28,493 nt of DNA from IMG/VR virus record IMGVR_UViG_3300037264_002599, positions 1-28,493 of that record. One strand, written 5' to 3'. The position numbers and the translations under genes are program-made. Of this stretch, positions 1 to 25,674 are shown one piece after another (the first letter of the stretch is position 1; each line of letters starts with the position of its first letter). The notes under the pieces are model-generated. The model saw nothing but the letters and a program-made list of their open reading frames with translations, did not search any database and had not been told where the DNA came from. Source of the DNA: a virus.

Positions 1-1514
1 ATATGTAGTTGCTCTAGACATTTTCGACTATAAATTTCGACTCCATCTTCACATAGATGATCCATTAATGCTTTATCTAAGTCAGGTTTATGTGTGGCTG
101 ATGTTGGGAAGCCAAGTTTCTTACTAACTTGTCCAGAGGGTGTCTTCATTCTATAAATATTAGTATAAGCTACATCATAATATAGTGAATTACAAATTGG
201 TATTCCAATGCCTGTGCGCTCTGGCACTACAAATGCATTGTTGTACCAGCGGGCTACATAATCGACCATCATGACTATAATGTTCGGTAATACCTTTATA
301 TTCAATTCGGCAACTTGTTCTTTAGTAACACAGTCAATGACCACTATGGCAGAGAAGTCTTCATCTTCACCAGATGAGAAGTCAACTCCTATAGAGTACG
401 TATGACCTGATGCGCCAGGTTTTATGATTCGACCATTTTCTATAAGATCTGGTTCTGGCTTTACCGGCTTGCGCCATATTTTTAGTTCATCTTCAAAGTC
501 AAGTTGTATCGTGTCACTACTGACTGGATGAACATAATCAACTTTACCGACTTTCCAATAGGTGTCACTTACTGTTGTTTCAATGTACTTTAATGCAGTA
601 GCAGGTAAGATTGTGTTACCTGACCCAATAAATTCAGCCAAAACCTCCTGACTGAATAGGTGTGCTTCACCACGTTGTTGCAATTGACGATATTGTTCCT
701 CTAGCCATGGACTCCAGTATTGACCCCATTTTTGGATTTCTTCTTTGGTTTCACACTTACGCATTCCGGCTGTTGGGCATATTGTACGATTCTTATTTGT
801 GAATTCATCTTGGTAGGTAATTTTCCAATCCATATCCCACCAATTAATATGGATTGGATAGAAATCATTTTGCCCTTTTTCCGCACCATCCCATGTCGAG
901 TGATACCAATTACCAACGCCCTTACATGTTGATATTACGATAACATTGCCACCGTGAACAAGTGTCTGTTGCCCTCCCGCCCACATCTCATCCATATGCA
1001 ACATGAATGCTGCCTCATCTAGAATAAACAGTGAAGATGATTCTGATCGCATGGTATTAGGGCTTGATGTAAGGCTTTTTATGACTGAACCATTTGGGAA
1101 ACCAACCGTGTGTTCATTCCATGCTCCACCGATTGCTTCTGGGTTTGGATTACCATATATCTCTTTAAATTCATCGGGGAGATACTCATATACCGTTTTT
1201 ACATTCTTTTTCAAGAATTCTTTAGCGTCTTCGTCACGCTTGCTAACAATAAGAATCTTCTTATGTGAGAAGAACATTGCGTACCATAATGCAAAAGCTC
1301 CGGTTAATGTTGAGATCCCACATTGTCTACATTTTCTGTAAATTGTATATCGATATTTCAGATATGCTCTGATTGAACTACGCTGGTATTTAAATAACCT
1401 AAATGGTAATATGCCTGCTTTTGGGTGTTTTATTTTGCAGAAGTTTTCTATGAAATATGTGGGACTAGACTGGCAGCGCTTAATAAGTAATGCCATTTGC
1501 TCAAGACGATTCAT
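1..1514 (-). CDS. Terminase large subunit (TerL, gp17-like), 3' end missing
   Basis: This is the DNA-packaging motor ATPase and nuclease, which cuts concatemeric DNA and pumps it into the prohead. I translated the minus strand from the ATG at 1514; the frame stays open to the window edge, so the C-terminus is missing. Visible parts: a Walker A-like segment CRQCGIST at residues 62-69, a Walker B segment SLFILDEAAF at about 162-171 with Asp-Glu, and a nuclease-domain start YSIGVDFSSGEDEDFSA typical of the RNase H-like fold. The Walker A segment lacks the usual GKT lysine; Lys61 sits before it, as in deviant Walker A terminases. The start overlaps the upstream gene by 14 bases, with AAGGA about 10 bases before the ATG. 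An alternative start is the ATG at 1496. The call rests on motifs and on the neighbouring small-terminase candidate. Confidence 0.92.
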   Translation of the reverse strand, partial: MNRLEQMALLIKRCQSSPTYFIENFCKIKHPKAGILPFRLFKYQRSSIRAYLKYRYTIYRKCRQCGISTLTGAFALWYAMFFSHKKILIVSKRDEDAKEFLKKNVKTVYEYLPDEFKEIYGNPNPEAIGGAWNEHTVGFPNGSVIKSLTSSPNTMRSESSSLFILDEAAFMLHMDEMWAGGQQTLVHGGNVIVISTCKGVGNWYHSTWDGAEKGQNDFYPIHINWWDMDWKITYQDEFTNKNRTICPTAGMRKCETKEEIQKWGQYWSPWLEEQYRQLQQRGEAHLFSQEVLAEFIGSGNTILPATALKYIETTVSDTYWKVGKVDYVHPVSSDTIQLDFEDELKIWRKPVKPEPDLIENGRIIKPGASGHTYSIGVDFSSGEDEDFSAIVVIDCVTKEQVAELNIKVLPNIIVMMVDYVARWYNNAFVVPERTGIGIPICNSLYYDVAYTNIYRMKTPSGQVSKKLGFPTSATHKPDLDKALMDHLCEDGVEIYSRKCLEQLH

Positions 1515-14429: not shown

Positions 14430-14504
14430 TGGAGCGCTAGGGCCTGCATCGAGCAGCCCTCTCCCACCTGGAAAGTGAGCACATCGAGCCTATGCTTCTA
14501 GCGC
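14430..14504 (-). tRNA. tRNA-Gly(UCC)-like gene with encoded CCA
   Basis: The minus strand folds as a cloverleaf: 7-bp acceptor GCGCTAG/CTAGCGC, discriminator T and encoded CCA (14432-14430); short D arm GCAT/ATGT with GG in the loop; anticodon stem CTCAC/GTGGG with loop TTTCCAG, anticodon UCC; T loop CTCGATG. U73 agrees with bacterial Gly identity. Unusual points: A instead of U at position 8, a C where T54 is normal, and one extra base in the T stem (GGCTG/CAGGCC), so it could be degenerate. Its first bases overlap the stop codon (TAG, 14500-14498) of the homing endonuclease gene. Confidence 0.55.
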
Positions 14505-16066
14505 ACAAGATCATATACATATCTAAACTTCTTCCCACCCCAAACCTTTGAATAACCAAACTTATTACAATATTCAGTCTCCATCATAGACATCTGCTTA
14601 GCCTTATTCCACAAAGTTTTCTTGTGACAGATATAACCTCTATTATCAGCATACCAATAATCAGGCGAAACTTCACCATCAAGTCGCCAATTACTGGCCT
14701 TATAAATTGTCCCAAGATGATTATAGGTAGAATCAGCAAATGAAACTAAACACTTTACTTCTAATCTACTTTGTTTGACATAACCAATTGATTTGGCAAT
14801 TAAATAACTAGCAAAATTCTTAACCTGGTATTTAGGGTGAATGCAAAATCGAGATAATTCAAGAACCCCACTAAACTTATAACCCTGCTTTAACGCTACT
14901 TCCTGTCTCACCGGTATTGAGTATATGCAAACTGCTATAAGAACATCACCAAGATAGAAACCGAGATTAATACCAGATCTACCGATCCTGCCAGCATAAT
15001 GATATTTAGAAACAAATAACTCAGCTTCCTTAGCTTCAACAATTGACATCTTAATAAAATTAAAATCGAAATTTATAACTTCGATCTTCGATAATCCTAA
15101 CCAATATTTCAATGTCTCTATAATACGATCTTTAAAATTAAATTCATGCTCCCATAAATACTTTAAATCAAATTCTGAATAATAAGTTTTAAGATAAGTT
15201 GATTTCGATTTATCCTTACTGACTGTTTTAGGCAGAGAATGCCAATAATCACCCTGGACCTCAATTAACAACGGTCTAATTAGATCAACACTTGGTTGTA
15301 AATCAATGCGACAATCAATTTGATAAAATCCGATTGTAATTTCTTTCTTATATTCGATATTAAGATCATCTAAAATAGAATATAAGATATTCTGTTGCGT
15401 ACTTGGCCCCTTTAACATCTTTTGCAAATTCAATAATCTAATCTTAGACATCTTCTCTCTATATTCAGGATCTGACCAAACCTCATTCATTCTTTCTCTA
15501 AACTTCTCACTATGACGTAATTCATCCATTTTTCGACGATAAACATCAGTAGCTCTATATTTCTCGATCTTAGCACGATAATTAGGATCATCCCATTGTT
15601 TCTTACACCTATCAGAGAATGGTCTCTTAATCTTCTCTCTAAAACCTGGCTCAGACCACATAGCCTTAGAACAACTTGATATAGCATCTCTATTAATCGT
15701 TGCAAGCCATCGATTCTTATAAACAGGATCAGACATTAATATTTTATTCCTATCACTAACTAACTTACGCATCTTATCTGATTTAAGATGATTCAAGACT
15801 TTATTAGCTGATTCACTATCCCACAATTTCTTGGCATTCCTAGAACAAATCACTTTATTAATTGAACATTTATGACACGAGTACACACCACCATTTTTCC
15901 TAATCGTCTGAAGATGTGAACATAGTTTGATTATCTTGACGTTATTACACTTAGGACATTTAATAGGGACATCCATTTTAGTTGATGGAACAACATCCAA
16001 CTTATTATATTGAACATATTGTGAAAATAACCGATCATCTGATGAAACATCTATCATATAATTCAT
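14498..16066 (-). CDS. Vsr-like homing endonuclease fused to Mom-like acyltransferase domain
   Basis: A 522-residue multidomain protein. Residues 35-70 carry a zinc-finger-like C37-x2-C40...C64-x2-C67. Residues about 80-210 hold five repeats of a DNA-binding type resembling NUMOD3/IENR motifs (W-S-D-P-E-Y-R-E-K-M and variants near 112, 138, 159, 173, 197). Residues about 222-320 look like the Vsr/EDxHD nuclease fold: QIDCRIDL, LLIEVQGDYWH (267-276) and YLWEHEF (303-309). Residues about 340-520 resemble the GNAT-fold Mom family that modifies adenine in phage Mu: LELSRFCIHP, LVSFADSTYNHLGTIYKASNW and the end KKFRYVY. It starts just downstream of the sheath terminator. Two starts are possible (16066, or the ATG at 16057, better spaced from AGGA). 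Domain calls are from pattern recognition; the nuclease part is surer than the Mom part. Confidence 0.75.
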   Translation of the reverse strand: MNYMIDVSSDDRLFSQYVQYNKLDVVPSTKMDVPIKCPKCNNVKIIKLCSHLQTIRKNGGVYSCHKCSINKVICSRNAKKLWDSESANKVLNHLKSDKMRKLVSDRNKILMSDPVYKNRWLATINRDAISSCSKAMWSEPGFREKIKRPFSDRCKKQWDDPNYRAKIEKYRATDVYRRKMDELRHSEKFRERMNEVWSDPEYREKMSKIRLLNLQKMLKGPSTQQNILYSILDDLNIEYKKEITIGFYQIDCRIDLQPSVDLIRPLLIEVQGDYWHSLPKTVSKDKSKSTYLKTYYSEFDLKYLWEHEFNFKDRIIETLKYWLGLSKIEVINFDFNFIKMSIVEAKEAELFVSKYHYAGRIGRSGINLGFYLGDVLIAVCIYSIPVRQEVALKQGYKFSGVLELSRFCIHPKYQVKNFASYLIAKSIGYVKQSRLEVKCLVSFADSTYNHLGTIYKASNWRLDGEVSPDYWYADNRGYICHKKTLWNKAKQMSMMETEYCNKFGYSKVWGGKKFRYVYDLVR

Positions 16067-16129: not shown

Positions 16130-18994
16130 TTACTGAGTAGCGAGAACCACGCCACCGGCCTGAAGAACAGCCTCAGAACTAAAGCTAGCCTCTGTTCTAA
16201 GGACTACTAGATTTAGTTGAATGAATTCTGCTGCGCGCGTGGGCTTCAGGAAGTACGCAACGTGCAACTCATTGCGATCAATCCGTTCTGGCGTGTTATT
16301 TCTATCGTCGCAAACAACCGAAAAACCAGTCAATCCACGACGTGCCTGAATATCGGCAAGGAATGAGCTGCTAACATTCGCAACACGTGCTCGCGTGATC
16401 TTATCGTTAGGCTCAAACACGAACTGACGTAGGAAATTAATCGCATTCTTCTTAATGAAGATCAAGAGCATGCGGACATTAACGCGATCCAAAGCCGTAG
16501 CACGACGTTGTAGCGTCCTCTGACCCCATACCGTGATCCCGTCTTGCGGGAAATTCACAATCGCATTAACCGCATTTCCAGAACCATACATCAAATCGCG
16601 CTCACCCATACTCAGATCAACTTCTGTATCGAGTGGGGTCAGTAAGCGACCTCTATTCACACCAGCAGGAGCAAACCAAGTCTCAGCTACACGCTCAGTC
16701 CTAGCATAAACACCTGAAACATGGCCACTTGGTGGTGTAAAGATCGTACCACCATTAAATTGATCAAACAACTTCAACCATGGATGGTACAACGCACCAT
16801 AGCTTGAGTTAATTGCCTGAGCCAAATCACTGAAGAGGATACCGTTGTGCCAATCAACAACCTGTTGAGCACGTAGGCCAAATGGTGGATCAATGATGAA
16901 GAGACAATCACCACGCGTCTCACACATTCTCAAGCCCTGGCCAATTACCGCACCAGAACTAAATCCTGGGATGATGAGCAATGAAATGTCGAACACTTCT
17001 GGATTCTGGAATGCAAAGATGCCAGTCTCCAAATTCGGATTACCAATCACTGATCTATCAAGCTCAGAAGAGAATGACGGATCAGCCGGTATGCCATTTG
17101 CCGAACCAGTGAAGTCCTTACGGCTGAACGAACCAGGTACCCTAACCTCGAAATTGTCAGGATCATTCACTGGATCATTATTCAAGAAAGCAGGACGCGG
17201 TATCCACTGAACAAAACTATTACCATTCGGACCACCAAACTGGGAACCTTCATTGATCACGTTCCCAATATAGCGCTCATCGCGTGGATCGAAAGTCACA
17301 TCTTCAAATGCATCGACAGTCTGATTATTCTTGTCTTCAATGGTGACCTTAAAACGACCAGCAACATCACCAGCACCTTCACCTGCGCCGAATATATCCA
17401 GTGTAACCTTAAAATCATCAACCCAGGTACCGGCACTCTTCGCAACTAGCCATCCAACGATATTAGCAAAATATCCTGAATCAGCTGCACATTCATCACT
17501 GAATGCATCAACCTCGCAAGAGAGTGGGGTATTTGGCGTAACTGTACCAGCATCAGGCAGCAATACTCGTGAATCGCTGAATACCTGATATGCCCTCGTG
17601 TATGGGAATTGAATGCCAAGTTCTTCTGCGAAACGCAGAGTCTTGAAATGTGATCCATCGGCTTGCATTTTGAGCTGGTCGAATTGGTGATCAACCACTG
17701 TCTCAATGAAGACATGTGTTTCACCACCAGGAATTAACATTGCGAAGGAGCGCCAATAACGTTCACCTGTCTTAATACCACCAAGATGTATCGCATTGGC
17801 GATAGCAGCACCTGATTGATTCAAACCAACAGTGATACTGAATTCAATCTCGACGGTGCTGGCTTGACCAACTACTTCAATATTGACACGATTGTTCTCC
17901 GTAGTAATATCATATGGCTCTGTATTGGTCGAATGAAGGTGACTACGTGGGATGTCATAAGCATATAGAGTTTGTCCAACTTCTAAGGAAAATGCCTCTC
18001 TCGATATAAGTTGAATGTTCCTACCAGCAACATCAGTCGTAAAGCATACCGTATCGTCGTCCTGAGAAATCGCTCTGTATGGCTCTACACTCGAAATCAG
18101 TGTATTAATATCATCAGCGAAATCATCAGAATCGGTATAGGTAGAACCATCTGGGATCGTGTACTCAACCACTGATCCAGGATCTTGTCTATCAACATTG
18201 AAGGAGAACGTTCTATTGTCTGGTCGAACGGTGAATGTGAATGTATCGTTGGCTGCAATTGGGACTGACCCAGTTACAACAATAGCAAATACTAGTCCAT
18301 CGCCGATATCGATCAGTTCTGATGTGCCAGGAGTACCACTTTCCACTATTATATCGGCCAGTACCGTAGTGCCATCTGAATTACGAATGACCTCGAATGT
18401 TGCGCCATCCATTACGGAACCACCAGTAGCAGGTACATCGCTGGTGATCAATACTGTGAATGAATCATCAATTGCACCAGTGTAGCTGGTCAAACTGACA
18501 AAGCTCAGTGTGGCACTTACTGGTCCTGGGGTCGGGTCTACATCAATATCGTTATAATCAATATCAAACACAAGTGCCGAATGGAAAACAAGTGGAGCAT
18601 CGACACTAACTATTCTTGTGCAGATCTTACCGAAGTCAATTCCGGAGAATATCGCTATTCGTCCCCATCCTTTACCACGAGCACCTGAATTGTCGATACA
18701 AATGTCTGCTAATCCATCTGGTTGTCCTTCTTCGCATTCTACGCCGACCCGTAGAATCCATGCTCTTCCGCCATCTTCAAAGTAGGCTAGGACTGCATAG
18801 CCAAGGAAGCTCTCTGGGAATGGCTCGCCGAAGATGTCAATAAATTGTTGTGAGTTACCAACGAAGGTCGGGTCCTGGAGAGGACCTTTTTTGGCAGTTC
18901 CAATGAACGCGGGTGTTAGTGCGCCCGTGTTGGTTGGAATTGCGCTTAGATCAATCTCTCTAGGAAATACTCCTGGCGAAAGAAAGACTGCCAT
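16130..18994 (-). CDS. Contractile tail sheath protein (gp18-like)
   Basis: A 954-residue sheath subunit that polymerises around the tail tube and contracts to drive injection. The N-terminus FLSPGVFPREIDLSAIP and TPAFIGTAKKGPL...FGEPFPESFLGYAVLAYFEDGG are classic for the family, as is the C-terminal domain with ITVWGQRTL, NVRMLLIFIKKNAINFLRQFVFEPND and the final RNELHVAYFLKPTRAAEFIQLNLVV. It is about 300 residues longer than T4 gp18 (659). Extra beta-rich, Thr/Ser/Asp-rich stretches (roughly 140-330 and 500-560) look like surface insertions on the outside of the sheath. A strong GAGGAG sits 8 bases upstream and a terminator follows. The gene seems more GC-rich than its neighbours, fitting very high expression. 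Confidence 0.93.
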   Translation of the reverse strand: MAVFLSPGVFPREIDLSAIPTNTGALTPAFIGTAKKGPLQDPTFVGNSQQFIDIFGEPFPESFLGYAVLAYFEDGGRAWILRVGVECEEGQPDGLADICIDNSGARGKGWGRIAIFSGIDFGKICTRIVSVDAPLVFHSALVFDIDYNDIDVDPTPGPVSATLSFVSLTSYTGAIDDSFTVLITSDVPATGGSVMDGATFEVIRNSDGTTVLADIIVESGTPGTSELIDIGDGLVFAIVVTGSVPIAANDTFTFTVRPDNRTFSFNVDRQDPGSVVEYTIPDGSTYTDSDDFADDINTLISSVEPYRAISQDDDTVCFTTDVAGRNIQLISREAFSLEVGQTLYAYDIPRSHLHSTNTEPYDITTENNRVNIEVVGQASTVEIEFSITVGLNQSGAAIANAIHLGGIKTGERYWRSFAMLIPGGETHVFIETVVDHQFDQLKMQADGSHFKTLRFAEELGIQFPYTRAYQVFSDSRVLLPDAGTVTPNTPLSCEVDAFSDECAADSGYFANIVGWLVAKSAGTWVDDFKVTLDIFGAGEGAGDVAGRFKVTIEDKNNQTVDAFEDVTFDPRDERYIGNVINEGSQFGGPNGNSFVQWIPRPAFLNNDPVNDPDNFEVRVPGSFSRKDFTGSANGIPADPSFSSELDRSVIGNPNLETGIFAFQNPEVFDISLLIIPGFSSGAVIGQGLRMCETRGDCLFIIDPPFGLRAQQVVDWHNGILFSDLAQAINSSYGALYHPWLKLFDQFNGGTIFTPPSGHVSGVYARTERVAETWFAPAGVNRGRLLTPLDTEVDLSMGERDLMYGSGNAVNAIVNFPQDGITVWGQRTLQRRATALDRVNVRMLLIFIKKNAINFLRQFVFEPNDKITRARVANVSSSFLADIQARRGLTGFSVVCDDRNNTPERIDRNELHVAYFLKPTRAAEFIQLNLVVLRTEASFSSEAVLQAGGVVLATQ

Positions 18995-20268: not shown

Positions 20269-20592
20269 CTATCCAATTTTCTTCTTATTTAATAAATTAA
20301 CAACATACGATTTGGACATCAACTGCTTATGAGCACTTTCAATAGCATGGGTATTGCGTTCCATTTCTCTTATTTTCTCACCTTTAGGATCATCTACTGT
20401 CGGTTCCACGACAATCGTTGCGGCATCAGGCGCGTACCTGATGCGCGGATTGAACTGTCCATTCGACTTCTCACGTATCCGCTTCTGTGCGTCCTGTGCT
20501 ATCGTAGTTATAACATCATTTTTAGCCTGACGGATTACATCTTTGGCAAGCCTTAATATGTCAGCACTATTCTTGACCTGAATTTTAGCCAT
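20269..20592 (-). CDS. Small basic helical protein, unknown
   Basis: A 107-residue protein, mostly helical and basic: ILRLAKDVIRQAKNDVITTIAQDAQKRIREK at the N-terminus, a short strand region ATIVVEPTVDD, and a C-terminal basic end (LLNKKKIG). No family recognised. GGTGA lies 5 bases before the ATG. It is placed between neck-type genes, so a small head-tail joining factor is possible. Confidence 0.6.
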   Translation of the reverse strand: MAKIQVKNSADILRLAKDVIRQAKNDVITTIAQDAQKRIREKSNGQFNPRIRYAPDAATIVVEPTVDDPKGEKIREMERNTHAIESAHKQLMSKSYVVNLLNKKKIG

Positions 20593-20615
20593 ACATCACC
20601 AATAGTATATTTGGA

Positions 20616-21230
20616 CTAACTCTTTTCGGTTCGGAAAGACACATCAATAGTCTGATCACCAGTAAGATTCTCAACTAAACATGACCAATATAACCAACGA
20701 TACTTGAAATTACCCGAATCAGATGCTTTAATAACCCTATACCGATCAACCCTATTATGAACACCCTCACGTATGTCTGGTATCTGAGCAACACTCATTG
20801 TATTATGTGGAACTATTAATATATCACCCTCTGAAATCATCCTTTTACCAACGGTCTGGAAAACATTGGCTCTAGAAAAATGCACTGTGGTCTGATTCTG
20901 AATATCAACACCATATCTAGTTAATTGAATATCGGCTGGAGCCGGTTCAAAGAAACCCTTTATTTTCTTACCAAATCGATAGGTTGGGTCAGCATCTTCA
21001 TCCCATACCTCATCTTTATTACCTTCATTCTGGGTTCTTTGGTAAATCGTGATCCAAGCCCCAGATAAATTTACTAATTCCTCAGCAAGACGCTCAGCAT
21101 ATGCAATGTCTGGGCTGTCATGATTATAGGATGATAATAGTGAATTTACTCGTTCTTGATCAAGACGAGGGTCTGGTAACTTATCAATCGAGATAAATTG
21201 TTGTTGTGGGTCAAAATCGTGAATAGCCAC
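20616..21230 (-). CDS. Putative neck protein (gp14-like)
   Basis: A 204-residue protein starting with GTG just 3 bases after the previous stop, with GGGG about 6 bases upstream. The central part KGFFEPAPADIQLTRYGVDIQNQTTVHFSRANV followed by ISEGDILIVPHN has the arrangement seen in T4-type gp14 neck proteins (an 'fG.ei.de.tf..s...f' strand pair followed by 'p.eGDliy.p'), and the last third carries strands YRVIKASDSGNFKYRWLYWSCLVENL. Neck proteins close the filled head and accept the tail. The neighbour at 21721-24025 is a gp13-like neck gene, the usual gp14 partner. The identification is tentative. Confidence 0.45.
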   Translation of the reverse strand: MAIHDFDPQQQFISIDKLPDPRLDQERVNSLLSSYNHDSPDIAYAERLAEELVNLSGAWITIYQRTQNEGNKDEVWDEDADPTYRFGKKIKGFFEPAPADIQLTRYGVDIQNQTTVHFSRANVFQTVGKRMISEGDILIVPHNTMSVAQIPDIREGVHNRVDRYRVIKASDSGNFKYRWLYWSCLVENLTGDQTIDVSFRTEKS

Positions 21231-21233
21231 ACA

Positions 21234-21695
21234 TTACCCCAATGAATTACTGTTCGGCCTCATTTTCGGATCACGCGTCGTCTTAAGCACATCTTGTTCA
21301 AGAACGCACCCACTAAAATTAAATCCTGAACATAAATCTCCGTCAATGGTCAATTTCTTAGATGATTCTTTAACTCTAGCATTTTCTTTCAAAATCCTAT
21401 AATAATCGGTCAAACACACTTTAGGACACTTATTAGCATTCGGTGGTGGACCATTCGGTAATTCAATGAAACGACCAGTCCCGCTCTGCCCCGCTGGTGT
21501 CAAAACACGCACAATCCTAGAACCAGGTATGAGGCGCAACACATCCGCAACTGGAATCACTGATGCGGCACAATTATTATTACGCAGCAAACTAGTTCCA
21601 GTTACTGATGACACAGGTTCACATCCCGGTACATTTATTACATTACCATTCATGATTTCAAGCTTATTTCTAATCATGATTTCTGATTTAGCCAT
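21234..21695 (-). CDS. Unknown protein in neck gene cluster
   Basis: A 153-residue protein, rich in Asn and Cys, that I do not recognise. Segments include NGNVINVPGCEPVSSVTGTSLL, LRLIPGSRIVRVLTPAGQSGTGRFIELPNGPPP, and six cysteines (about C25, C42, C89, C93, C122, C130), which could bind metal. GGTGAG precedes the ATG. It is located between the gp13-like C-terminal half and the gp14-like gene, so a virion connector function is likely but unproven. Confidence 0.6.
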   Translation of the reverse strand: MAKSEIMIRNKLEIMNGNVINVPGCEPVSSVTGTSLLRNNNCAASVIPVADVLRLIPGSRIVRVLTPAGQSGTGRFIELPNGPPPNANKCPKVCLTDYYRILKENARVKESSKKLTIDGDLCSGFNFSGCVLEQDVLKTTRDPKMRPNSNSLG

Positions 21696-21720
21696 AACTC
21701 ACCAGAGCACCAATTTAATC

Positions 21721-22338
21721 TCACCAAAGAATCGGACCCAACGGTTCACTAAGTAACAGGGCATCCTGAACTGCTTTATCTTTCTCAGCTTGCCCCTCGG
21801 TCCTTAGAGCATCGCCATTCAGGTTCAAAGAACCACCACCAGGCGCAGGTATATTACCAAATTTACTCCTAGAATTACCCAACATAATCTTAGCCTCCGC
21901 GACTAGCGCTCGCTTCAAAATCTCTCTAGCATGCGGTGAGCGAAATCGTTGAACCGTTGGAATATACTCGATAACAACTGGGAAACTACCGCGTGGTGTT
22001 GGAAATAACCTTATTTTGTTGTCTCCCTTAACCTCCCATTGTCCTTCAGTTGCGAGAATGCGTTGACTGAATTTCCTATAAGCTTGTAATAAATGGTAAT
22101 CAGTCAAGATATTCTGAATACCAGTTACGTTACCAACATTCGCTGCAAGACCAATCTTAAATAAAAAACGATCAAATGTGGTATCATATTGGATATTTTG
22201 TTTGCCACCAAGCTCGGTATATAGGTCCATAAATTCACGGTTATGTTCACTAGTGCCGAGAACTAGATGAGTAGTTTCATGAATAAGATCGTTAAAACTA
22301 GACGCGAAAATCAATCCACAATTGTGATCAGTTAACAT
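21721..22338 (-). CDS. gp13-like neck protein, C-terminal half, preceded by a mini C-intein
   Basis: A 205-residue protein whose first residues M-L-T-D-H-N then Cys look like the end of an intein (His-Asn) and the +1 nucleophile. It then continues as the C-terminal part of a T4 gp13-type head-completion protein: VTGIQNILTDYHLLQAYRKFSQRI, KIRLFPTPRGSFPVVIEYIP, and AEAKIMLGNSRSKFGNIPAPGGGSLNLNGDALRTEG ending LGPILW. Its own GAGGA Shine-Dalgarno seven bases before the ATG shows it starts here; the frame upstream is closed by a TGA a few codons earlier. The start overlaps the last bases of the endonuclease gene. Joined to residues 1-107 of the gene at 24025 it makes a full-length neck protein of about 306 residues. 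A HETTH...H motif occurs near residue 20. Confidence 0.8.
   Translation of the reverse strand: MLTDHNCGLIFASSFNDLIHETTHLVLGTSEHNREFMDLYTELGGKQNIQYDTTFDRFLFKIGLAANVGNVTGIQNILTDYHLLQAYRKFSQRILATEGQWEVKGDNKIRLFPTPRGSFPVVIEYIPTVQRFRSPHAREILKRALVAEAKIMLGNSRSKFGNIPAPGGGSLNLNGDALRTEGQAEKDKAVQDALLLSEPLGPILW
22321..22338 (-). other. Candidate six-residue C-intein (MLTDHN) before Cys+1
   Basis: Codons ATG TTA ACT GAT CAC AAT followed by TGT. The pair His-Asn then Cys is the C-terminal splice motif of inteins (block G). It aligns with the end of the N-terminal half (P-V-L-V-H, then stop), whose Asn is missing. Confidence 0.6.
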
Positions 22339-23287
22339 ACAATTTCCTCAAAACCAACTTATACAAAGTTGGCGCAAGACACTTGCTATAAAGATATTTG
22401 AATCCATCAATTGTATAATTCTTTAATTCATCATAGCTCTTAAAATAATAAGTGACTTGTTTTATGTCAGTTCGAGGTCTTGCTCTTATAAATTCATATC
22501 GCTCCTTTGCGTATCCATTCAATAACAGTTCCCATCCTTTAATCCTTTCCACATCTGAAATTAATCTAAATTTTTTACCTCGTTTTTCGGCCTCGCGTTC
22601 AGCATATAATCTCTTATCAGTTGGCATAACCACATATGACGGTTTCACTTCTACCCACTCATCTTTTAACGTAAAATCAATAGTGTATGTTCTTTGCTTC
22701 CCACTTATATGATCAACATATTTGATTCTTTCTGATTCATATGTCCAATTAACACCAGCTTGATCAAGATATAGTGTATATGTTAATTCCATAATTGATT
22801 TCAGATAAATTATTGGTCCATTCAACATCTGAAATTTAACTTTGTTGACTGAACGTGAATATTTATTTGTATGTTGACTTGGATGAACATAACCATGTTT
22901 TTCCAAATAACGTGATTGCCATGCACCAACCAATTGGTCATTTGATTTTATTAACCCAAATTGCTGAACATACTTCCTAACCGTAGAATAATGCACACCA
23001 ATCTTTTCGGCAATTGATTTGGTATCAAAATTCTTATTAATGTATTCATCGACAAGATATTTCTTGGTCAAGACATCTGATTTGGCGCAAACTTTCTTTC
23101 TATGCTTAATCTTGGCTATGTCTGAATGATTATAACGTGACGTATTAATACCAGCAGAACGTAGTTTCCTTTTTATTGTTACTTGACTGCATCGATAATA
23201 TTCGGCAAGATCAGATAGCGTCTTACCATTATTAAATCGGTCAACCAACTCATCTTTTGGTATATCAATTACATTCCATATTATCAT
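22328..23287 (-). CDS. Free-standing homing endonuclease, PD-(D/E)XK-like
   Basis: A 319-residue protein located exactly between the two halves of the neck gene. Residues about 10-50 and 75-115 are two helix-turn-helix units (TLSDLAEYYRCSQVTIKRKLR and SIAEKIGVHYSTVRKYVQ), suitable for DNA targeting. The central part has a PD-(D/E)XK-type nuclease pattern: Glu167 (SIMELTY), Asp204 (YTIDFTL) and Glu213-Val-Lys215 (WVEVKPS), followed by a helical region. It would cut intein-free alleles and promote its own spread. It is in a different frame from both flanking halves; its stop overlaps the start of the downstream half and its start lies 24 bases after the upstream stop. The ribosome binding site is weak. 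Group I introns are not visible around it, so it belongs to the split-intein element. Confidence 0.8.
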   Translation of the reverse strand: MIIWNVIDIPKDELVDRFNNGKTLSDLAEYYRCSQVTIKRKLRSAGINTSRYNHSDIAKIKHRKKVCAKSDVLTKKYLVDEYINKNFDTKSIAEKIGVHYSTVRKYVQQFGLIKSNDQLVGAWQSRYLEKHGYVHPSQHTNKYSRSVNKVKFQMLNGPIIYLKSIMELTYTLYLDQAGVNWTYESERIKYVDHISGKQRTYTIDFTLKDEWVEVKPSYVVMPTDKRLYAEREAEKRGKKFRLISDVERIKGWELLLNGYAKERYEFIRARPRTDIKQVTYYFKSYDELKNYTIDGFKYLYSKCLAPTLYKLVLRKLYVN

Positions 23288-23311
23288 AATCTATATTTGA
23301 CAGCAATTAAA

Positions 23312-24025
23312 TTAATGTACTAAAACTGGTTCGCCATCATATGCCACATACAAACATTGTGCCTGTCTCATAGCAACAGCATAACTATCAATCATACCAC
23401 CATCCTTAACTGAGATTATCTGAGATTTGTGGTCAATCCCAACCAAAACATCGTTCAATTCTAATTCATCATTATTTAACCATCGATTCTTATTCAAGCA
23501 GAATATCGGATGATTAACAGTCGCAACTAATGTCCCATATTCATGAACAAGCTGCCTTGCTTGTTGTAAATGCTTTGAATTCCTCTTGTAAATTATTGCT
23601 TTCCTATTTCCGTATGGAGTCTTTGCTTTCCAATGTGGTTTCCATTCTGAAATTTCTTGAAGTCGATTATCCTTGTCAAGGATTTTTGTGGCTTTTGGAA
23701 AACAGAAGAGGAAGCTCTCAGCTCCAAAGATATCACCAATCCTCGTAGTTGCTGGATCCCATTTGACATCCTTTATCCAATAAGCGTCTGGTGGTAGATC
23801 ATATTCTGTTACTAGTGGTTGTGTGTAGAAGTACGCGTATTTCTCTTCTAGTGGGAAGTATTGAGCAATAAAATCACCAGTTACCCGGATTGCTTGTTCT
23901 AATTGTGGTTCTGTTAATTCGACCATTACGACTGGATGTCCAAGTTGAGATAGGACCTCGAACTTGATTGGATCTGATGGCAATTTCAAAACCACCGGTA
24001 ACTGTTCAGGTCCAATTATGGCCAT
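23312..24025 (-). CDS. gp13-like neck protein, N-terminal half, fused to Hint/intein domain
   Basis: A 237-residue protein. Residues 1-107 are the N-terminal part of a gp13-type neck protein: LSQLGHPVVMVELTEPQLEQAIRVTGDF, VTEYDLPPDAYWIKDV, and the end IGDIFGAESFLF. Residues 108-237 form a complete intein-like domain: Cys108 with FPKATKIL (block A), GTLVATVNHPIFC at about 164-176 with the Thr-x-x-His of block B, NDELELNDVLVG, and a last strand CLYVAYDGEPVLVH (blocks F/G) that stops at the penultimate His. The C-terminal Asn and the rest of the neck protein lie in the gene at 22338. I chose the ATG at 24025 because GGAGA is seven bases upstream; a longer frame begins at 24079 without a ribosome binding site. 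Confidence is for the intein and neck assignment together. Confidence 0.82.
   Translation of the reverse strand: MAIIGPEQLPVVLKLPSDPIKFEVLSQLGHPVVMVELTEPQLEQAIRVTGDFIAQYFPLEEKYAYFYTQPLVTEYDLPPDAYWIKDVKWDPATTRIGDIFGAESFLFCFPKATKILDKDNRLQEISEWKPHWKAKTPYGNRKAIIYKRNSKHLQQARQLVHEYGTLVATVNHPIFCLNKNRWLNNDELELNDVLVGIDHKSQIISVKDGGMIDSYAVAMRQAQCLYVAYDGEPVLVH
23315..23704 (-). other. N-intein / Hint domain (130 residues)
   Basis: Codons for residues 108-237 of the N-terminal half. Block A begins C-F-P-K-A-T-K-I-L; block B carries A-T-V-N-H-P; the end is G-E-P-V-L-V-H then TAA. No endonuclease domain is inside; the endonuclease is a separate gene just downstream. Confidence 0.75.
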
Positions 24026-24064
24026 AAAATTCTCCATTAATATTTTTGAGATAGATACAAGTAA

Positions 24065-24757
24065 ATGGACCCACAGCACTTGTACAACGCATCCTTTAGA
24101 TTCAATGCTAAGTATACTGATGTATTATACCCACGTATTGCATTAGCAGTTTTTGAAATGGTATTAACTGGTAAATGGGCCGAAGGTAATCCAGAGCAAG
24201 CTATTGATATGATTTTACATGATTGGTTGAATAATTTAAAGAATCGTAATGATTATATAGAAAGACTACGATCGACATTACAAGAAGATAGACATATTAT
24301 GGAGTGCACAATTTTACGACTTAATTATGCTGCTTTATTAGTTGAAGATTTCGATATGATCACGATTCATACTGGTAGACAGAGAGCGTTACCATTTACT
24401 AGTCTTGCTGAGCATGTTCAGACTGAATATGGTCTTGCTTATGCTGGTAAGAATGCTAGCGAAATGACCCTTGATGAAATCGAGGATCAAGCAAATAACT
24501 TTTATAAGTATAAAAAAGTTATTAAACAACGTAAGATCGGGGTGCCAGATGAAAAGCGTGCATATATTAAGAATAAAATTCTTGAATTAGGTTTCGTCTT
24601 CATTGAAGACTTAAATTTAGTATATTCAAGACTCAATCAATATCTACATGGTAATTATGAAACATCAATTATAGCTCGCCTTGCTTATTTGGCAGTAATG
24701 AATGGTGATGATCTTAGATCGGGAAATGTACCCCGCCTACCCCATATATATGATTAG
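24065..24757 (+). CDS. Unknown protein on plus strand
   Basis: A 230-residue, mostly helical protein. Segments: YPRIALAVFEMVLTGKWAEGNPEQAIDMILHDWLNNL near the N-terminus, a charged middle LDEIEDQANNFYKYKKVIKQRK, and a C-terminal LARLAYLAVMNGDD-like part. No family recognised. It is a lone plus-strand gene beside the fractured neck gene, divergent from it by 39 bases, and overlaps the minus-strand gene at 24714 by 44 bases tail to tail. Its ribosome binding site is weak (ACAAGTAA). A control function is conceivable from the orientation, but not shown. Confidence 0.6.
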   Translation: MDPQHLYNASFRFNAKYTDVLYPRIALAVFEMVLTGKWAEGNPEQAIDMILHDWLNNLKNRNDYIERLRSTLQEDRHIMECTILRLNYAALLVEDFDMITIHTGRQRALPFTSLAEHVQTEYGLAYAGKNASEMTLDEIEDQANNFYKYKKVIKQRKIGVPDEKRAYIKNKILELGFVFIEDLNLVYSRLNQYLHGNYETSIIARLAYLAVMNGDDLRSGNVPRLPHIYD

Positions 24758-25211
24758 CTGCTTCAATTCTGATTACCTTATACCCAGTTGATGCTTCAAT
24801 TGTATTCTTTAAATCAACCACAAGACTGTCGAGTTCAGAATCTGGAATTCTATTTGAGTTATTTGATGCGCCAACGCCAATCTTATATTCACCAGCATTT
24901 ATTACTCTACGTTCACCAACTGGTGCTTTTGGAAATGTGTTACGAGCACAAGCATGGCCACTGATTGTTAGTCTCGCTGTTTTGTTACCAAATTGTGGTG
25001 TGAATGCTACTGGTTTGGTTATATCAGTTACTACACCACACATTGCTAGTAATGCATCTTCAATTGAATTGGCTTCTTTTTCAAGATCACGATAAGTCTC
25101 GAATCGTTTCCCTTTTACTGGTACTATTTTTAGGGATGCTGTGAATGGTACATGTTTAGTAAATGGTATGTGAAATGCTTTACCGGGGGCTTCTGAGAAT
25201 GTCGTTGGCAT
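24714..25211 (-). CDS. Unknown protein
   Basis: A 165-residue protein with FHIPFTKHVPFTASLKIVPVKGKRFETYRDLEKEA, a central LTISGHACARNTFP part, and a C-terminal YKVIRIEAANHIYGVGGVHFPI. The mixed alpha/beta composition and its place downstream of a hairpin and a GC-rich gene suggest a structural or assembly protein, but no family is recognised. GGTGG lies about 8 bases before the ATG. Confidence 0.6.
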   Translation of the reverse strand: MPTTFSEAPGKAFHIPFTKHVPFTASLKIVPVKGKRFETYRDLEKEANSIEDALLAMCGVVTDITKPVAFTPQFGNKTARLTISGHACARNTFPKAPVGERRVINAGEYKIGVGASNNSNRIPDSELDSLVVDLKNTIEASTGYKVIRIEAANHIYGVGGVHFPI

Positions 25212-25228
25212 TTTTAGGCCACCATAGA

Positions 25229-25262
25229 CAGAGCGGTGAACGTTGTATCGTTCACCGCTCTG
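25229..25262. terminator. Perfect 14-bp inverted repeat after GC-rich gene
   Basis: Arms 25229-25242 and 25249-25262 (CAGAGCGGTGAACG and its exact complement) around a six-base loop, 22 bases after the stop of the gene at 25285. A very stable RNA hairpin. No T-run follows on the minus strand, so it may act as an RNA-end stabiliser or processing site rather than a classical terminator. Confidence 0.65.
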
Positions 25263-25284
25263 GTCCAGTAGCTATGCTGCCAGT

Positions 25285-25674
25285 TTAGACGACGAAAGCG
25301 TCTGACGGGCAAGCATCCCGCAGTTCGCCGTACAAATCGTCGGCTTTGTTGGCCAGCGTCTTCTGAATTTGAACTTCTCGCGGATTTCCAACCATCCGCA
25401 CTGGGAAGTCCAAACCAGCCACTGCAGCGTATACGTCCGGTAGCGAACAAGTCGCACGCGGCGATACAACCACAGGGTGACCAAAGCGGAACGCATCCGT
25501 CTTGAACGCATCACGAGTCTCGACCACCTGCACCTCTTCACCCGGTACGCTCACATAGAATGAGTCGAATGGGGTGGTTAGATGCTTGATCGAGGTATGC
25601 CGTCTGTTGTCCTTGACGGCTCGCGCTCGACGAAGTACCGAGATCGTGGTATTTGCTGGTTGAGCTGCGCCCAT
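25285..25674 (-). CDS. Unknown protein with GC-rich codon use, probably highly expressed
   Basis: A 129-residue protein without a recognised family: ISVLRRARAVKDNRR, FDSFYVSVPGEEVQVVETRDAF, FRFGHPVVVSPRATCSLPDVYAAVAGLDFPVRMV, and a C-terminal DACPSDAFVV. The G+C content is clearly higher than the surrounding genes and third positions are mostly G/C, like the sheath gene. It has a strong AAGGAG Shine-Dalgarno seven bases upstream, a small hairpin before that (25693-25717), and a stable hairpin after it. This arrangement is typical of abundant structural proteins, for example a head or tail decoration protein. Overlapping open frames on the same strand are shadows caused by the GC content. Confidence 0.7.
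   Translation of the reverse strand: MGAAQPANTTISVLRRARAVKDNRRHTSIKHLTTPFDSFYVSVPGEEVQVVETRDAFKTDAFRFGHPVVVSPRATCSLPDVYAAVAGLDFPVRMVGNPREVQIQKTLANKADDLYGELRDACPSDAFVV

What the first reader, a model, noticed from the sequence alone, without database searches (positions are those of the whole stretch)
21721..24025. Fractured neck gene: split intein with a free-standing homing endonuclease between its halves
The gene at 24025-23312 encodes the N-terminal part of a gp13-like neck protein fused at Cys108 to a 130-residue Hint domain (block A C-F-P-K-A-T-K-I-L, block B T-V-N-H). The gene at 22338-21721 starts with an intein-like C-terminus (H-N then Cys) and encodes the rest of the same neck protein. 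A PD-(D/E)XK-like endonuclease gene in another frame fills the space between. Fractured genes with split inteins and endonuclease genes are known from phage and metagenomic sequences, but I know of none in a neck gene with this split point. Trans-splicing would join E-S-F-L-F to C-G-L-I-F.
Basis: partly seen in the sequence, partly recalled or inferred. Interest (0 to 1): 0.92.

Follow-up and report, generated by a model that had tools for sequence, protein, structure and literature searches.

The report
Split neck gene: Hint plus metalloprotease
In several groups of uncultured phages the gene for a virus neck protein is cut in two at one exact spot; one half carries a self-processing intein-like domain that lacks its last residue and the other half starts with a small metalloprotease-like domain, which points to an undescribed way of cutting out, and probably joining, the two protein halves.

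Summary
The gene really is fractured, the N-half really carries a Hint (intein) domain, and an endonuclease gene lies between. In 66 uninterrupted homologues the protein reads ...ESFLF|N[VI]GN... The true C-extein therefore starts at Asn67 of the C-half, not at Cys7 after 'HN', and the joined protein would be 246 residues, not 306. The first 66 residues of the C-half are not an intein C-fragment. They are a small HExxH...H domain resembling WLM/SprT/minigluzincin metalloproteases. The Hint in the N-half is already complete: it aligns to whole inteins up to their penultimate residue and lacks only the terminal Asn. I found 12 distinct fractured lineages, 11 of them with both halves on the contig. 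All 11 pair a Hint ending at that same column with the metalloprotease-like domain; neither occurs in the 66 intact genes. The motif E..H...H is kept 12/12 (first ligand His 10, Asp 2), as is a junction motif hydrophobic-[AGS]-x|Asn. Proposed mechanism: the Hint activates SFLF as a thioester; the protease domain frees the Asn amine; direct aminolysis joins the halves. Cleavage without ligation is not excluded. I found no description of such a pair.

The parts
23705..24025 (-). N-extein: residues 1-107 of the gp13-like neck protein, ending ...GDIFGAESFLF
   Evidence: 92% identical to the N-part of the uninterrupted gene in L011/L002; continuous with NVGNV in 66 uninterrupted homologues
23312..23704 (-). 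Hint domain (130 aa, Cys1 ... VLVH, then stop TAA): complete intein fold lacking only the terminal Asn
   Evidence: VIA Z 14.3, rmsd 2.2, 121 residues, model 108-237 on Mtu RecA intein 1-439; Z 11.2 on Npu DnaE, chain range -1..136; aligned set A14 of 11 lineages all ending at the same column
23510..23521 (-). Hint block B T-V-N-H (residues 169-172); N-H invariant in 11 of 11 lineages
   Evidence: alignment A14
22328..23287 (-). free-standing endonuclease gene, 319 aa: HTH motifs plus TnsA-like PD-(D/E)XK domain
   Evidence: Pfam Tn7_TnsA-like_N E 6.5e-5, HTH_23 E 5.3e-5 (both just below Pfam's cut-off); phrog_8446 HNH endonuclease E 7e-10 over the HTH part; orthologues between the halves in L001 and L020, 58% and 50% identical
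22141..22338 (-). 66-aa HExxH...H metalloprotease-like domain at the N-terminus of the C-half
   Evidence: weak Pfam WLM and SprT-like matches in 6 and 4 of 12 members; profile matches minigluzincin 4jiu E 0.0083, WLM protease 5jig, MJ1213; E, H, H invariant in 12 of 12 lineages
22243..22281 (-). metal-binding motif H20-E21-T-T-H24-x7-H32
   Evidence: alignment A15; about 0.6% chance per shuffled domain
22141..22149 (-). proposed cleavage motif L-A-A just before Asn (hydrophobic, [AGS], mostly [AGS])
   Evidence: P3 hydrophobic 12/12, P2 in AGS 12/12, P1 in AGS 10/12, background AGS 20%
21721..22140 (-). C-extein: NVGNVTGIQN... to the stop, 139 aa, rest of the neck protein
   Evidence: 96% identical to the uninterrupted gene in L048 (=L002); head-tail adaptor Ad2 phrog_211 E 8e-5; T4 gp13 match weak, E 0.001

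Best explanation
A mobile, two-part protein-processing element interrupts a gp13-like neck gene exactly between SFLF and Asn-Val-Gly-Asn. Part 1, on the N-half, is a complete Hint domain without its terminal Asn. It should perform the intein N-S (or N-O, where residue 1 is Ser) acyl shift and so hold the N-half as a (thio)ester. Part 2, on the C-half, is a minigluzincin-like domain that should cut its own C-terminal junction and expose the alpha-amine of Asn. That amine, brought close because the two neck fragments fold together, attacks the (thio)ester and forms a normal peptide bond, giving the 246-residue neck protein. The endonuclease gene between the halves provides homing. SHOWN: the anatomy, the exact junction, the Hint fold, the strict pairing of the two domains, the conservation of catalytic-type residues, and repeated gain or loss at one site. 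INFERRED: Hint activity, zinc binding, self-cleavage, ligation, homing. A further guess: the Hint ends at its penultimate residue because the extein's own invariant Asn fills the vacant Asn pocket.
For: Junction: 66 intact loci (40 non-redundant) read SFLF|N[VI]G[NQ] without interruption. Pairing: all 11 lineages with both halves have a Hint ending in H or K plus stop and an HExxH-like domain; among records searched with the profiles, intact ones have no copy at this gene. The Hint is complete but for Asn. The junction motif and a near-constant 29-37 residue distance from the third metal ligand to the junction fit specific self-cleavage. dN/dS in L004 versus L039 is about 0.12 (Hint) and 0.16 (protease domain), with dS near saturation. 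Precedent for ligation by the free amino group without a +1 nucleophile: type A BIL domains (PMC4031507). Precedent for a minigluzincin's own C-terminal tail lying in its active site: proabylysin (PMC5557861). Scattered distribution: 8 changes of state on the extein tree, at least 3 forced by strong branches.
Against: No activity has been shown. Two lineages (L057=L058, L061) have DExxH instead of HExxH, so zinc chemistry is not certain everywhere. The protease-like profile match is weak (E 0.008; Pfam below cut-off), and the C-half model is poor (mean pLDDT 48.9). Hint and protease domain are exchanged between lineages (L001 versus L004: Hints 18%, protease domains 77% identical), so a tight joint active site is unlikely. 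Type A BILs mostly cleave rather than splice. The element is known only at one site in one gene.
Confidence: 0.5

Rival explanations
1. Self-removal without ligation. The Hint hydrolyses off the N-half, the metalloprotease domain cuts itself off the C-half, and the two neck fragments work as a non-covalent pair in the virion.
For: +1 is Asn, not a nucleophile; Hints without terminal Asn and without +1 nucleophile (type B BIL) are known to cleave uncoupled from splicing (PMC4031507). Free exchange of modules between lineages suggests each part works alone.
Against: If two pieces suffice, plain stop and start codons would do and both domains should decay. Instead both are kept in 11 of 11 complete lineages, apparently under purifying selection, and the junction residues of both halves are kept exactly.
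Confidence: 0.27
2. Conventional split intein: the C-half supplies an intein C-fragment whose terminal residue is the Asn of AAN|VGNV, which cyclises and cuts after itself.
For: The ends 'GFAAN' and 'GLAAN' resemble intein ends, and the 'IIYDSLLD' stretch of one subgroup faintly resembles block F (sequences; the comparison is from memory).
Against: The Asn is invariant in uninterrupted genes, so it belongs to the extein; +1 would be Val or Ile; the N-half Hint already holds the last strand up to the penultimate residue; the block-F-like stretch is absent in other subgroups.
Confidence: 0.08
3. One reading: splicing at FLF|CGLIF, leaving a 60-residue insert in the neck protein.
For: An H-N-C triplet occurs at residues 5-7 of the window's C-half.
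Against: H-N-C is not conserved in any other fractured lineage; the insert would put an HExxH domain inside the neck protein, absent in all intact homologues.
Confidence: 0.02
4. The HExxH domain is a non-catalytic docking or chaperone domain, or cuts something else (for example the Hint), and the Hint alone does the chemistry.
For: DExxH in two lineages; weak family scores.
Against: E, H and H are invariant while almost nothing else is; the domain always abuts the junction, with a small-residue motif at a near-constant distance.
Confidence: 0.1

Closest known systems
Fractured genes with split inteins and free-standing endonucleases (Dassa et al. 2009, cited in PMC6892783; phage MIJ3 DNA polymerase example)
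   Same: Host gene split in two, Hint on the N-half, endonuclease gene between the halves, phage and metagenomic setting
   Different: The MIJ3 case has intein blocks F and G with a Ser +1 on the C-half (block G GNNILVHNS). Here the Hint is whole except for Asn, and the C-half carries a metalloprotease-like domain.
Bacterial intein-like (BIL) domains, types A and B
   Same: Hint fold, no nucleophilic +1 residue; type A can ligate through the free amino group of the C-fragment (PMC4031507)
   Different: Type A ends in His-Asn and cuts its own C-junction by Asn cyclisation; here Asn is absent and the C-junction seems to be handled by a second domain on another chain.
Minigluzincins and WLM/SprT proteases (proabylysin 4jiu, Wss1, MJ1213 selecase)
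   Same: Small HExxH plus third His as in Wss1; in proabylysin the C-terminal tail lies in the active-site cleft (PMC5557861)
   Different: Fused directly in front of half a phage structural protein; 65-103 aa; DExxH in two lineages.
Hedgehog autoprocessing (Hog) domain, 1at0
   Same: Uses only the Hint N-S acyl shift with an outside nucleophile (PMC7664689); the model aligns at Z 13.7
   Different: Proposed nucleophile is the amine of a protein half, not cholesterol.

Membership tests
Canonical (class 1) intein, cis or naturally split | Hint fold | tested here: met
   VIA Z 14.3, rmsd 2.2, 121 residues
Canonical (class 1) intein, cis or naturally split | Cys or Ser at position 1 and block B with N-H | tested here: met
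   C1 in 9 and S1 in 2 of 11 lineages; N-H invariant
Canonical (class 1) intein, cis or naturally split | terminal Asn (or Gln/Asp) in block G | tested here: not met
   All 11 Hints stop at the penultimate position, H or K
Canonical (class 1) intein, cis or naturally split | Cys, Ser or Thr at +1 of the C-extein | tested here: not met
   +1 is Asn in all lineages by alignment with intact genes
Canonical (class 1) intein, cis or naturally split | C-fragment completing the Hint fold on the C-half | tested here: not met
   The N-half holds the whole fold; the C-half has an HExxH-like domain instead
Fractured gene with free-standing endonuclease | host gene split in two and continuous in relatives | tested here: met
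   66 intact homologues
Fractured gene with free-standing endonuclease | endonuclease gene between the halves | tested here: met
   Present in all 11 complete lineages; shortened in L047
Fractured gene with free-standing endonuclease | protein trans-splicing | not testable with these tools
   needs expression
WLM/SprT/minigluzincin metalloproteases | HExxH plus third His | tested here: inconclusive
   HExxH...H in 10 of 12 lineages, DExxH...H in 2
WLM/SprT/minigluzincin metalloproteases | family profile score above the curated cut-off | tested here: not met
   Pfam WLM 15.6-19.3 bits against 26; SprT-like 21.1 against 25.6 in the tables shown
WLM/SprT/minigluzincin metalloproteases | fold | tested here: inconclusive
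   C-half model too poor, block pLDDT 30-71 in this domain
Type A BIL domain | C-terminal His-Asn | tested here: not met
   Asn absent in all 11
T4 gp13-like neck protein (exteins) | sequence profile match to gp13 | tested here: inconclusive
   E 0.001 to T4 gp13 chains over two short segments; phrog_211 head-tail adaptor E 8e-5

The most novel reading that the evidence does not exclude
A new class of protein ligation: a Hint domain that makes the thioester and a separate metalloprotease domain on the other polypeptide that makes the free amine, replacing both the +1 nucleophile and Asn cyclisation, and spread as a homing element through phage neck genes.
Probability: 0.45. Interest if true: 0.95.

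Novelty: new variant of a known kind. Interest (0 to 1): 0.87.

Why it matters
Every splicing intein class known to me cuts its C-terminal junction by cyclising its own last residue. An element in which that step seems to be handed to a protease domain on another chain would be a new route to protein ligation, would explain Hints without Asn next to half-genes, and could give a ligation tool that needs no cysteine or serine at the joint. It also shows that 'fractured genes' are not all split inteins and gives a sequence signature by which more can be found.

Tried and rejected
RNA-level joining: no Rfam match up to E 0.5 in 20500-25300, and the space between the halves is filled by the endonuclease gene. 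Assembly error: excluded by 12 lineages with the same arrangement. Other host genes: Hint and protease profiles found no second copy of the pair in the 53 record searches made with each; the other Hints there that I read are ordinary cis inteins with HN-S or HN-C. Cultured phages: no relative of the Hint or the endonuclease beyond weak partial matches; the KX853510 and MSW-3 hits are unrelated inteins in other proteins. The bacterial-genome hit L127 lies in a NADH dehydrogenase operon and is false. Recent homing between the window and its nearest intact relative L002: extein DNA identity of 84% and 79% is little different from the neighbouring gene, 79%. Structure search with the C-half gave no match to a protease, only mostly helical matches below Z 7 over residues 128-205; the protease-like part was barely tested, so nothing is excluded. 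The block-F-like stretch in one protease subgroup was considered as an intein C-part and rejected (see rivals).

Full report
OBSERVATION. On the minus strand three open frames follow each other: 24025-23312 (237 aa), 23287-22328 (319 aa) and 22338-21721 (205 aa). The first and third together hold a phage neck-type protein (phrog_211 head-tail adaptor for the third; weak match of uninterrupted homologues to T4 gp13, E 0.001). The middle one has helix-turn-helix motifs and a TnsA-like nuclease domain. So a split gene with an endonuclease gene in it is real.

WHERE THE GENE IS SPLIT. Uninterrupted homologues settle the joint. The closest, L002, reads ...RIGDIFGAESFLF NVGNVTGIQNIL.... A scan with the C-terminal part gave 80 loci. 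In the set of 84 entries tabulated (some are repeat fetches of one contig), 66 (40 after removing those over 95% identical) are continuous at this point, 16 are fractured and 2 entries (one contig) carry an ordinary cis intein. In every fractured locus whose N-half is held, its extein ends at SFLF, and the C-half resumes at N[VI]GN.

THE HINT HALF. Residues 108-237 of the N-half were modelled at pLDDT about 62-88 and match inteins over their whole length (VIA Z 14.3, rmsd 2.2 on Mtu RecA intein residues 1-439; Z 11.2 on Npu DnaE, chain range -1..136; Z 13.7 on the hedgehog domain). From general knowledge of these inteins (not tested here) residues 440 and 137 are their terminal Asn. So this Hint is not split: it is complete up to the penultimate residue and lacks only the Asn. 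The same holds in all 11 lineages for which both halves are on the contig: all end at the same alignment column with His or Lys followed by a stop codon, keep Cys or Ser at position 1, and keep N-H of block B. Ordinary inteins elsewhere in the same group of phages keep His-Asn followed by Ser or Cys.

THE OTHER HALF. The 65-103 residues in front of the C-extein carry HExxHx6-7H. Across 12 lineages only M1, E, H and H are invariant; the first ligand is His in 10 and Asp in 2 (L057=L058 and L061). Members match Pfam WLM (6) or SprT-like (4) weakly, below the cut-offs, and a profile of the set finds the minigluzincin proabylysin first (E 0.008), then WLM proteases and MJ1213. The three residues before the junction are hydrophobic, then A/G/S in 12 of 12 (background 20%), then mostly A/G/S. 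The distance from the third metal ligand to the junction is 29-37 residues throughout. Such a motif right at the joint is what a cutting site would look like.

THE PAIRING. Lineages with both halves: window, L001, L020, L003/L004, L039, L015+L005, L047, L057=L058, L061, L062, L076. L092 has the C-half only, because its contig begins there. L037 is a near copy of L003/L004 with the N-half only, where its contig ends. Hint and protease-like domain always come together and neither is found at this gene in uninterrupted records. On the extein tree the fractured state needs 8 changes, at least 3 forced by well supported branches, so the element comes and goes at exactly one codon boundary. The two domains are exchanged between lineages: L001 and L004 share 77% identity in the protease domain but 18% in the Hint. 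The gap between the halves ranges from about 1 kb to about 5 kb, always with an endonuclease gene. In L004 versus L039 dN/dS is about 0.12 for the Hint, 0.15 for the endonuclease and 0.16 for the protease domain (dS is near saturation, so these are rough).

HOW IT MOST LIKELY WORKS. The +1 residue is Asn, so the usual transesterification cannot occur, and there is no terminal Asn to cut the C-junction. A known way round exists: in type A BIL domains the free amino group of the C-fragment attacks the thioester directly (PMC4031507). What is missing here, the release of the C-fragment's amino group, is just what a protease domain fused in front of it could do, and in proabylysin the protein's own C-terminal tail lies in the active site (PMC5557861). 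I therefore propose: Hint thioester at SFLF, protease cut at A-A|N, aminolysis, ligated neck protein. The exchange of modules suggests that the neck fragments themselves bring the ends together. Ligation is inference (confidence 0.5). Cleavage of both domains without ligation is the main rival (0.27). If that were enough, simple stop and start codons would serve, and the long retention of both domains would be hard to explain.

KNOWN OR NEW. Fractured genes with split inteins and free-standing endonucleases are known (Dassa et al. 2009, seen here only as cited in PMC6892783). A Hint without Asn paired with a metalloprotease-like domain I did not find in nine text searches of open papers, which do not cover most subscription journals. 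It fails three defining tests of a canonical split intein. I file it as a new variant of a known kind; if ligation is shown, the mechanism would be categorically new.

LIMITS. Everything rests on sequence and one partly good model. The phages are uncultured. The protease fold is inferred from a short motif and weak profiles. The element was found in one gene only, and the collection scans are limited to pattern-based candidates.

Noticed in passing
L006 1849-2976 (same contig as L050): An ordinary cis mini-intein interrupts the same neck gene four residues upstream (FGAE|CLRG...FVVHN|SFLFNIGN), an independent Hint at almost the same site.
   Followed up: partly
L001 4276-6666 versus L004 3429-6588: Protease-like domains 77% identical while the Hints on the other half are 18% identical (one Cys1, one Ser1): the two modules have been exchanged by recombination.
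   Followed up: yes
L057 4040-4789, L061 5930-6706: First metal ligand of HExxH is Asp (DExxH) while E and both other His remain; whether such a site binds zinc is worth testing.
   Followed up: no
window 14498-16066 (-): 522-aa protein matching homing-endonuclease phrog_3339 and Mom-like phrog_1384 next to the tail sheath gene: probably another mobile endonuclease.
   Followed up: no
window 24065-24757 (+): 230-aa open frame on the opposite strand directly upstream of the N-half, without family match.
   Followed up: no
L035 3584-4936 (KX853510.1): Protein annotated as head morphogenesis looks like a deoxycytidylate deaminase interrupted by an intein; the annotation seems wrong.
   Followed up: no
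window 16130-18994 (-): Tail sheath protein of 954 aa matched end to end by a 496-position profile (phrog_23), so a large part of it is inserted sequence.
   Followed up: no
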